49,900 nt of DNA, from the NCBI GenBank assembly GCA_018398765.1, contig JAHBMJ010001834.1:1-49900 (forward strand), written 5' to 3'. The stretch comes from Chromera velia (lineage: Eukaryota; Sar; Chromeraceae). Numbering within the stretch: the stretch's first letter is position 1; every line of letters starts with the position of its first letter. Of this stretch, positions 3,506 to 48,643 are shown one piece after another. The translations under genes and the position numbers were made by a program. The notes beneath the pieces were generated by a model. It had not been told where the DNA came from. It saw only the letters and a list, made by a program, of their open reading frames with translations, and made no database searches.

Positions 3506-6500
3506 ATGAGTCACCAAGGCCCCTTAGAATGTCAGCTAGTCTTTCCCTCTGCCTGGTGGTATATGCGTCGGTTTGATTCGTAACTTACAGCTGCTCTTTT
3601 TGTTCTTCTTCCATCCTTGCTTTCTCCCAGCGTCCCTCAGAATGTGCATGTCCACGTTTACCCGGCTGTCTTTCGATGTAATTCCTCCCTCTCTTGCTTG
3701 CCAGTCTCGATCGCGCTGATGCCTCTTTTGCACACACCTTTTGTGTTGGATTGCAGTCCTGGCTGAACGGTTTGCGGAGTTTCTAGAGACAGCCTGCCAC
3801 ACAATCCTTTACTCACGGACGCTCTACCCTCCCAGTCAGTCACGACGTTTTGAATAGAACATTCCCTCAGAGACACAGAGGAAGAACATAGTCACGGATG
3901 CTCTACCCTCCCTTCCAGTTGGTGTGGGAGGGTTGCAATGAAAAGAGAAAAACCCCGAGTGATCCCTTCATCCTCTGAACGAGTCGCTCTCGTTATTTGT
4001 CTCTTTCATCTTCAAAGTCGGTCGCTCATTCGTTCCTTTGTTGGCTTATTCCTCCACTCAGATAATGAATATCAATTATGTCTTGATCATTTGAACCCCA
4101 GGTGTTTTGAAAGGGATCAGTTCTCAATGATATGAGACCTTTTGTTTTTCATCCACCTGTCGATTAATCCTTCCTCCTCTCTTTTCCGGCTGCGTCGTGG
4201 TCTTACAAGATGCCCGTTTATCCGCTGACCCCGACCTCTTACCATTCTGCTTTTCTTTTTTCATGCTTGAATTTTCTTCCCTTCCCTCTTTCTTCTGTAT
4301 TTCTTTCTGTGTCTGCTGCCCTTTCATGGCCGTTCCTGCAGGGACGTTTGAGAGGATATGGAGGTTTGGCTTGCGCGTCTGGTCAGTCGGTCGGTCGGAG
4401 AATGAACACACACCGCAGCTCTATCTCTGCAGAGAGGCACAGGGACAACTCTCGTCGATACGTTGTTCGTTCAACTCAAACTCTTCTTATCTGCGCACCG
4501 GCGCATGACTACAGTCAAAATAAGCAGAAAGGGCCGATTGGTGCTTATCAGCAGACTGAAGAGAGACTGTCGAAGTGAGAGATGGATAGACAGATCGAGC
4601 TAGGGGTGCACCCAGCTAGCTGGAGAGAAGGATCGGCAGGCAGGCAGAGAAGAGAAAAGAAACCAAAAGCTCTGCCTGTGTGAATGTTTCCGATTACCTG
4701 CCTGCCTGTTTGCCTGTTTTTTCCCTTCTGCGTTTCTTTCTGCCTGTGTGTCCATCTTTCATGCGTGCAGGTGGTGCCGTGCGCGTTCGGTCCATGAGTA
4801 CATTCGCGAAGTTAGTCTTGCTATCTCTCTGCATGATGGTTTCTCTCTTTCTTTTTCTCTCCCCCCCTTTCCTTTTTTTTGTGCTAGCAACCTGTGCATT
4901 GCTGCCTCTCTCTCTCTCTCTCTCTCTCTCTCTCTCTCTTCAGGAAATTTCACTTTCATTTTCTCCTCCCGGCCCCTTTGGCCTCAGTTCCACTACAGAG
5001 AGAGAAGAGAACAGAAGAGAAGAGAAGAGATGAGACCGAAAAGAGTGGAGGTTTGTCGGGAAATTACGACGAAAATCGACAGAGAACCCATCACTTAACG
5101 AACATGGGCGAAACATCAATCGATCAAATTGATCGAAGGGGCATGGATTCGTGCAGACACTCTCTGTACATTCTCAAGCAAGCAAAAACACATAATATAC
5201 GCGGTTTGATGAAGCTGATCTTCTGAATGAACGCACGAGTGCATGCAGACGTGCCATATGCTGAAGGACCTTCTGCACAAACGGCTCCTTCGGGAATTTG
5301 CGCTGTTGGTTCTCGACGGAGATGCGGAGGTGGTCGAGCGATTTGCCTTCAGGGTCAGTAGCGGGGCAGAAGGGAGGGAGGACTTTACGTAGAGTAAGAT
5401 TGAAAAGATTGACTCAACGATCAGAAGGAAGCAAAGGACAGACGCCAATCAATCACAATGAAGATTTAAGCGCTACCGGCCGGTTTTCGTTGTGAAAGAG
5501 GAACCTTCTTCTTGTGAGAGAGTCTGCCCTTTTGTGTCCCCCTGTTGTTTTTTCTCTCTTTCTTTCTTTCTTTCTTTCCTTCCCTTTTGTTTGCTGTTTT
5601 GTTTGACCTACCCGATTTTTTTGTATTTGTGTTCCCTTGTGCATCTATTTATTAATGTTTGTCTTTGTGGATGCATCATACGTACGCACTCATGTGGGGT
5701 CATGCAGGCCACCGACTGTTGGGGCCTGTCTGAGATCGTGAGGCGGGATGGGGGGGGGCGTGCGGATCTGGACGCTTCGTCGCTGTATGCGCATTTCCGT
5801 GCGGCTCTGGGGGCGCTGGAGGGCGTGGAGACGGTCGCTGAGGGGCGGCTGAGGGCGAGAGGGGCGATCGGTCGGTTCATCATGCATCAAGGTTGGGGGG
5901 ATGGGTTTGTGTGATTGTGTTTGAATTACCATTTTCATCCTTCGCCTTTCAAACATGCAGCTCTCTATTTTCATGTTTTGCTTTAGTTGATGCACTCACT
6001 GTCTATTGTTGGATGCATGGATGGATGGTTTGAATGTGTTTTGCGTGCATAGGATGAATTCGGTAGTGATAGAGAAGAATCATTCGAAAACGTTAAACAC
6101 AAATGTGTTCTGCTTCACTCAAACGTTTTTCTTTTGATTTGATGCGCCTTCTCGCTGTTTTTCTGTCTGTTCTTCTCACTCAAAAGGAAGGGGGAAGGAA
6201 AAAGGACAACAACGAAGATGGACCCCATGGGTTTGATCCAAACCAAATGATTGAATGGAATCGTTTGCATGATGAATACCCAGAGAACACAAAAAAAGAA
6301 GAGACGGCATGGGTTCATTGGTTGGGGCCTCTTCGGTGGCGGGGACGGAAGAGGGGGACCTGTCTGTCTGTGTGAGGGGGCCTCAATTGAGGGATTCATG
6401 TGATGAAGAAACGAAACGGAAAAGGTGCTGTGGTAGCAAGAGTGACAGCAAGGCAAGACTCCGTTGACGAAAAGTAGAAAGGGCAAAACAGAGAGACTAC

Positions 6501-48643: not shown

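What the first reader, a model, noticed from the sequence alone, without database searches (positions are those of the whole stretch)
3812..47930. Exon borders are repeatedly duplicated into the adjoining intron
At seven places the end or start of an exon, with its splice site, occurs a second time 70-125 bp away in the intron: REV7-like exon 2 (3,812/3,892), and cyclase exons 44 (23,905/24,018), 39 (26,173/26,252), 37 (27,391/27,511), 6 (46,074/46,156), 5 (46,585/46,658) and 4 (47,766/47,888). Two are acceptor borders, five are donor borders. Copies differ by about 0-15 percent, so events have different ages. Random tandem duplication should not favour splice junctions this strongly. Either introns are born or extended by duplicating AGGT-containing sequence, or an element inserts at junctions with long target duplications. 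I know of no described system with this signature in alveolates.
Basis: partly seen in the sequence, partly recalled or inferred. Interest (0 to 1): 0.88.

Follow-up and report, generated by a model that had tools for sequence, protein, structure and literature searches.

The report
Hairpin insertions that duplicate exon borders

Summary
All seven duplications are real. Six lie on exon borders that I could read; the REV7-like border I could not verify. Four have a common cause. Between the two copies at exons 44, 37, 5 and 4 lies a 47-102 bp insert carrying the arm TTTTCATACAGAATT. All seven window matches to the arm (up to 2 mismatches) fall in those four inserts. The genome holds 2,446 arm matches against 58 for a reversed control. 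In 80 further regions, 95 of 106 arm clusters are flanked by direct repeats, against 3.4% of shuffled pairs. Most repeats are 16-65 bp and variable, longer than ordinary target-site duplications. Splice motifs are 2.4 times denser inside them than in the adjoining 160 bp. One EGF paralogue shows the border only once. Best reading: a non-autonomous, MITE- or introner-like hairpin element makes long staggered insertions, and copies spanning a splice site survive because splicing discards the spare border with the element. Birth of new introns is not shown, the insertion enzyme is unknown, and three of the seven duplications lack the element. The organism is probably Chromera velia (inferred).

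The parts
23905..23964 (-). Direct repeat, exon-side copy: acceptor of exon 44 (44 nt intron + 16 nt exon)
23965..24017 (.). Element between the two copies at exon 44 (53 bp)
24018..24077 (-). Direct repeat, intron-side copy of the exon 44 acceptor
26158..26315 (-). Exon 39 donor border duplicated (period 82) with no recognisable element; exon copy 26240-26315
27391..27409 (-). Direct repeat, intron-side copy of the exon 37 donor
27410..27511 (.). Element with two arms at exon 37 (102 bp)
27512..27530 (-). Direct repeat, exon-side copy of the exon 37 donor
46074..46195 (-). Exon 6 donor border duplicated, 41/41 identical, 40 bp CA-rich spacer, no recognisable element; exon copy 46155-46195
46582..46606 (-). 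Direct repeat, intron-side copy of the exon 5 donor
46607..46653 (.). Element at exon 5 (47 bp)
46654..46678 (-). Direct repeat, exon-side copy of the exon 5 donor (TTGGAG|GTCAGC)
47770..47815 (-). Direct repeat, intron-side copy of the exon 4 donor, GT lost (AT)
47816..47886 (.). Element with three arms at exon 4 (71 bp)
47887..47931 (-). Direct repeat, exon-side copy of the exon 4 donor (GTGCAG|GTACGC)
3813..3912 (.). REV7-like gene: 21 bp repeated 79 bp apart, no recognisable element; border not verified here

Best explanation
A very short non-autonomous mobile element causes most of these duplications. Its copies have a median length of 62-66 bp, tend to form hairpins, and in most cases end in inward-facing arms with the core TTTTCATACAGAATTC. 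It inserts at staggered cuts mostly 16-65 bp apart; filling in the overhangs leaves a long direct repeat on each side (shown: the anatomy; inferred: the cut and fill-in). When the staggered target spans a splice junction, the gene keeps one intact border on the exon, while the element and the spare border fall inside the intron and are spliced out (inferred from sequence; no RNA tested). Insertions wholly inside exons should usually break the gene and be lost. That filter, with a probable bias of insertion towards exon-proximal DNA, concentrates survivors on exon borders and lengthens introns (inferred). Later unequal exchange between repeats would make the tandem arrays that are seen.
For: Arm motif: 7 of 7 window matches lie in the four inserts, 0.12 expected; a profile built from 113 non-window copies gives 8 hits at E up to 1, all in those four places. 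Genome: 319 exact 17-mers against 0 reversed; 2,446 arms with up to 2 mismatches against 58. Direct repeats: 95 of 106 arm clusters in 80 regions taken from hit lists, against 3.4% of 1,049 shuffled flank pairs; 58 of 68 at score 15 or more in the first set. Element folds: median z -3.35 against 0.22 in flanks. In 61 of 99 copies the outermost arms face inward. Splice motifs 19.4-19.7 per kb in the repeats against 5.7-9.5 outside, window excluded; Poisson p about 9e-11. In set 1 CAGGT is the most enriched of all 5-mers. At 11 of 11 sites where the exon beside the repeat had a Pfam match at E up to 0.01, the junction I read lies in the repeat; these peptides were picked for lying there, and four matches are below the curated cut-off. 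Repeats differ by 3.3% in exon parts and 8.6% in intron parts, as expected if one exon copy is under selection. Splice dinucleotide lost in 3 of 52 intron-side copies; the exon-side copy is intact because it was chosen so. A paralogous EGF exon carries the border once, without the element.
Against: No transposase, parent element or excision is identified. Repeat length is variable, unlike cut-and-paste transposases as I recall them. Three of the seven window duplications have no element. In set 2 CAGGT alone is 12 and 11 of 70 against 5.8 (sd 2.3, control maximum 15), so the border bias is weaker there than in set 1. More than half of the sites were not read as borders, and my readings were not blind. 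21 clusters had low repeat scores (10, 11). In 38 of 99 copies the outermost arms do not both face inward. The paralogue is diverged, not an allele.
Confidence: 0.72

Rival explanations
1. Break repair with a favoured filler. Long staggered breaks near exon edges are filled in and joined, and a common hairpin sequence is captured as filler by template switching. The element is then cargo, not an agent, and element-free duplications come from the same process with other filler.
For: Repeat length is variable and interiors vary; three window pairs lack the element; one insert shares 12 bp with the duplicated donor border of a neighbouring site (L064 at 1558 and 2112). Staggered-break introns are described in Daphnia (PMC4202315, passages read).
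Against: The same sequence recurs over two thousand times, with inward-facing outer arms in 61 of 99 copies. Daphnia repeats are 4-12 bp. Inserts in one locus are not more alike than inserts elsewhere (7 same-locus pairs).
Confidence: 0.18
2. A SINE-like retroposon: an RNA copy primed at nicks 16-65 bp apart, both ends primed on the same sequence, which would give the inverted arms.
For: Variable-length target duplications are typical of target-primed reverse transcription (recalled). A conserved outer module of about 30 nt is followed by variable sequence.
Against: No 3' tail stands out; both ends carry the arm in 61 of 99 copies.
Confidence: 0.08
3. Plain tandem duplication of AGGT-containing sequence gives birth to introns.
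For: Exon 39 is nearly a pure tandem duplication. By eye two sites have coding-like frames on both sides (L009 at 1451, L064 at 1460), though the L009 peptide had no Pfam hit. A potato case of intron gain by tandem duplication is in print (PMC4974935, listing and start of abstract only).
Against: At element sites the copies are separated by the recurrent insert, and 68 of 88 sites with a frame above threshold have it on one side only (weak model).
Confidence: 0.06
4. One reading: ordinary intronic repeats noticed only near exons.
For: Five tandem arrays in the span of the gene, not placed on borders, were not listed.
Against: Splice motifs are enriched inside the repeats against the adjoining flanks of the same loci.
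Confidence: 0.04

Closest known systems
Introners (Gozashti et al. 2022, PMC9860276; passages read)
   Same: Short repeated elements, many with terminal inverted repeats or target duplications, spread through genes; some take splice sites from the target.
   Different: The passages cite 3-9 bp duplications for earlier families; here mostly 16-65 bp. Introners are the intron; here the element sits in an intron beside a spare border. The word Chromera does not occur in that main text.
Amoebophrya introner elements (PMC7789003; passages read)
   Same: Alveolate, hairpin-forming inverted repeats with direct repeats at exon borders.
   Different: Inverted repeats of 8-20 nt lie at the two ends of mostly non-canonical introns; direct repeats are 3-5 nt.
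MITEs (short non-autonomous transposons)
   Same: Short, non-coding, inverted ends, high copy number.
   Different: Target duplications set by a transposase, short and of fixed length (recalled; the Amoebophrya paper gives 10-15 bp); here long and variable, no parent known.
Staggered-break neointrons of Daphnia (PMC4202315; passages read)
   Same: Direct repeats of exon ends attributed to staggered breaks.
   Different: Repeats 4-12 bp; no shared hairpin family in the passages read.
Direct repeats near splice sites (Rogers and Bendich 2025, PMC11782384; abstract read)
   Same: Reports direct repeats at intron borders and likens introns to mobile elements.
   Different: Repeats 4-30 bp, mean 11.4, in 213 introns of many taxa; no specific hairpin element in the abstract.

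Membership tests
MITE | Terminal inverted repeats | tested here: met
   61 of 99 copies have outermost arms facing inward, 38 do not; profile
MITE | Target duplication of short, fixed length | tested here: not met
   117 sites: 16-115 bp; 99 are 65 bp or less with a broad spread, 18 longer ones were set aside as mostly array units
MITE | Autonomous transposase-bearing relative with the same ends | not tested
   Arm position lists stop at the first 100; no transposase search was run
Introner | Element creates new introns | tested here: inconclusive
   Two candidate sites by eye (L009, L064); no RNA, no orthologues
Introner | Found in genes at splice junctions | tested here: met
   Splice-motif enrichment in the repeats; 11 Pfam-matched exons with a junction in the repeat
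SINE-like retroposon | 3' tail (poly-A or short repeat) | tested here: inconclusive
   Arm profile shows no tail, but 38 of 99 copies lack a clear arm pair
SINE-like retroposon | Internal Pol III promoter or tRNA/5S origin | not tested
   No RNA-family search was run
Staggered double-strand-break intron (Daphnia type) | Direct repeats of about 4-12 bp | tested here: not met
   Median 38 bp (47 sites) and 44 bp (70 sites)

The most novel reading that the evidence does not exclude
A new class of mobile element: a 40-100 bp hairpin that integrates through a variable stagger of about 16-65 bp, far beyond cut-and-paste transposases as usually described, and is tolerated in coding genes because its long target duplication carries a spare splice site. 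It would be an intron-lengthening engine that works at exon edges.
Probability: 0.4. Interest if true: 0.85.

Novelty: new variant of a known kind. Interest (0 to 1): 0.74.

Why it matters
How introns are gained and grow is still argued. Here is a genome with over two thousand marks of one short element, many with both repeats still identical (23 of 117), so insertion looks recent. Long target duplications offer a simple way for an insertion at an exon edge to be harmless, and they make the process testable with RNA-seq and a second strain.

Tried and rejected
Chance: rejected. An existing element followed by tandem duplication of border plus element should give two elements per pair; pairs with one element between two borders are the common form. 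Local copying of inserts: interiors of same-locus pairs are not more alike (mean 5.7, n 7, against 6.0, n 4,458). A cut-site motif at repeat ends: none visible. A fixed splice-site position inside the repeat: not seen, exon part 5-91 nt, intron part 2-50 nt. A self-trained codon model gave too few windows to use. A seeded one separated sites from controls only weakly (25 of 47 against 28% at score 4 or more, p 9e-5). Naming the organism through the PDB: two light-harvesting frames had only distant relatives among the 60 chains shown. Chromera velia is therefore inferred, from an assembly of 177.8 Mb, light-harvesting genes and alveolate-type gene content (recalled); the published assembly is 193.66 Mb in 5,953 scaffolds, against 4,040 contigs here, so the match is not exact.

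Rows dropped: set 1, 68 sites tested, 21 dropped (11 same array, 10 low score). Set 2, 106 tested, 36 dropped (25 array, 11 low score). Repeats over 65 bp (18 of 117) were left out, so the upper limit of 65 bp is my cut. The control was inflated by simple repeats (95th percentile 30); one search has the better one. Of 53 border readings entered one (L064 at 2103) was not parsed, because I had typed the context of the other copy.

Full report
WHAT WAS CHECKED. The seven duplications are in the window at the stated places. Six can be read as exon borders on the minus strand, each beside a frame open for at least 50 codons: exon 44 acceptor and exons 39, 37, 6, 5 and 4 donors. Of 10 peptides of this gene scanned, one hits the guanylate cyclase domain (PF00211, E 5.6e-16) and the exon 6 peptide hits E1-E2_ATPase weakly (E 5.8e-4, below the cut-off); the rest gave nothing. 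The REV7-like border was not verified.

THE INSERT. Four spacers (exons 44, 37, 5, 4) contain TTTTCATACAGAATT or its reverse complement: 7 matches in the window with up to 2 mismatches, all in these spacers, 0.12 expected. A profile built from 113 non-window copies gives 8 hits at E up to 1, all in these four places. Exons 39 and 6 and the REV7-like pair have no recognisable insert of this kind.

GENOME-WIDE. The window is part of a 177.8 Mb assembly. An exact 17-mer of the arm occurs 319 times, its reversed control 0 times. With up to 2 mismatches the 16-mer gives 2,446 against 58. In the first loci, selected by the exact arm and including the window, 68 arm clusters were tested: 48 have flanking repeats at score 20 or more and 58 at 15 or more. 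The random-point control of that call was inflated by simple repeats (95th percentile 30). A second set of 80 regions, taken from hit lists without a prior look at the sequence, has a better control: 95 of 106 clusters at score 16 or more, against 3.4% of 1,049 shuffled flank pairs. Median repeat length is 38 bp (47 sites) and 44 bp (70 sites); the full range is 16-115 bp, and 18 of 117 exceed 65 bp, mostly where array units are included. Median insert length is 66 and 62 bp. Among 117 sites 23 have identical repeats, 41 are 95-99% alike, 26 are 90-95%, 24 are 80-90% and 3 are lower.

THE ELEMENT. The outer module reads TGCATTYATTTTCATACAGAATTCTTTTTCA, best conserved in its core; the repeat boundary most often lies 8 nt outside the TTTTC core (22 of 157 arms, broad spread). 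In 61 of 99 copies the outermost arms face inward (34 are simple pairs); 38 show other patterns. Inserts fold far better than shuffles: median z -3.35, 63% below -2, n 98; flanks 0.22 and 9%, n 94. Some sites are tandem arrays of repeat plus element (for example L018, L026).

SPLICE SITES IN THE REPEATS. In set 1, of all 5-mers, CAGGT is the most enriched in the repeats (17 of 47 sites, either copy, against 3.0), then TGCAG (21 against 6.9). Counted on single copies: CAGGT 11 and 16 against 3.4, TGCAG 20 and 21 against 7.1. Set 1 includes the four window sites. Set 2 is weaker: CAGGT 12 and 11 of 70 against 5.8 (control maximum 15), TGCAG 24 and 25 against 12.3 (control maximum 24); there other 5-mers rank higher, partly because arrays bring arm sequence into the repeats. 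With both sets, window excluded and repeats over 65 bp left out, splice motifs stand at 19.4 and 19.7 per kb inside the repeats and at 5.7, 8.8, 9.5 and 8.6 per kb in successive 40 bp bins outside; p about 9e-11. By eye, and not blind, I read a junction beside a plausible exon in 52 sites (33 acceptors, 19 donors): 4 in the window, 20 of 43 in set 1 and 28 of 70 in set 2. Of 33 peptides scanned, eleven lie beside such a repeat and match Pfam at E up to 0.01: tRNA-synt_2, Dynein_C, MTHFR_C, AAA_9, ankyrin, PDEase, ion channel, THOC3 propeller, Microtub_bd, FYVE and WDR35, the THOC3, Microtub_bd, FYVE and WDR35 matches below the curated cut-off. Two further matches (kinase L011, PP2C L056) lie 100-150 bp from the repeat and are not counted.

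SELECTION. Across the 52 readings the two copies differ at 50 of 1,498 exon positions and 77 of 891 intron positions. If only one of two exon copies is constrained and neither intron part is, the exon rate should be about half of the intron rate; it is 0.38 of it. The splice dinucleotide is lost in 3 intron-side copies (exon 4, L009, L119); the exon-side copy is intact in all because it was chosen as such.

EMPTY-SITE PARALOGUE. A joined query for an EGF-type exon (L106) finds its own two copies and ten weaker matches in the same genome. I read one, L155: in the 520 bp printed the exon end stands once, followed by a GTGAGT intron with no element; its peptide is an EGF domain. In another gene one exon carries separate insertions at its acceptor and its donor (L134, L156).

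HOW IT MOST LIKELY WORKS. Shown: a recurrent hairpin-prone sequence; long variable direct repeats hard against it; splice motifs concentrated in those repeats. Inferred: insertion at cuts mostly 16-65 bp apart with fill-in, and removal of the spare border by splicing. That suggests a preference for exon-proximal DNA as well, an inference that needs annotation. Insertions also cluster: 8 of 34 three-kb loci have two or more independent ones.

KNOWN SYSTEMS. It resembles introners and MITEs but not in the length of the target duplication, and it resembles the staggered-break introns of Daphnia but with longer repeats and a common insert. The Chromera genome paper reports about 30 Mb of transposable elements; the passages I saw do not describe this element. 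My searches for it in print were made, in an open-access library only.

LIMITS. No RNA, no second strain, no annotation, no enzyme. The organism name is inferred. Three of seven window duplications are not explained by this element.

Noticed in passing
window 46074-46195: Exon 6 donor border duplicated with 41/41 identity but a CA-rich 40 bp spacer and no recognisable element, so a young duplication of another origin, or a variant insert.
   Followed up: partly
L156 about 1350-1750 (genome C1293:36000-36350): One exon with both its acceptor and its donor duplicated by separate insertions; the donor insert is only about 35 bp.
   Followed up: partly
L064 1558 and 2112: The first insert shares 12 bp (CGGCCTACCTGT) with the duplicated donor border of a neighbouring insertion about 550 bp away.
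   Followed up: no
L009 1451-1593 and L064 1460-1608: By eye, coding-like frames on both sides of the insertion: candidates for a truly new intron or a shifted exon start.
   Followed up: partly
L018, L026, L012; genome C3934:52280-52867: Tandem arrays of repeat plus element, three to six units, spacing 71-114 bp.
   Followed up: no
window 19653-19776, 24329-24440, 32889-33144, 45427-45641, 46459-46524: Tandem arrays within the span of the same gene that I did not place on exon borders and that lack the element.
   Followed up: no
L021 and L023 (genome C126:32063, C146:40438): By eye two contigs carry the same site with the same element, so copy or haplotype duplication after insertion.
   Followed up: no
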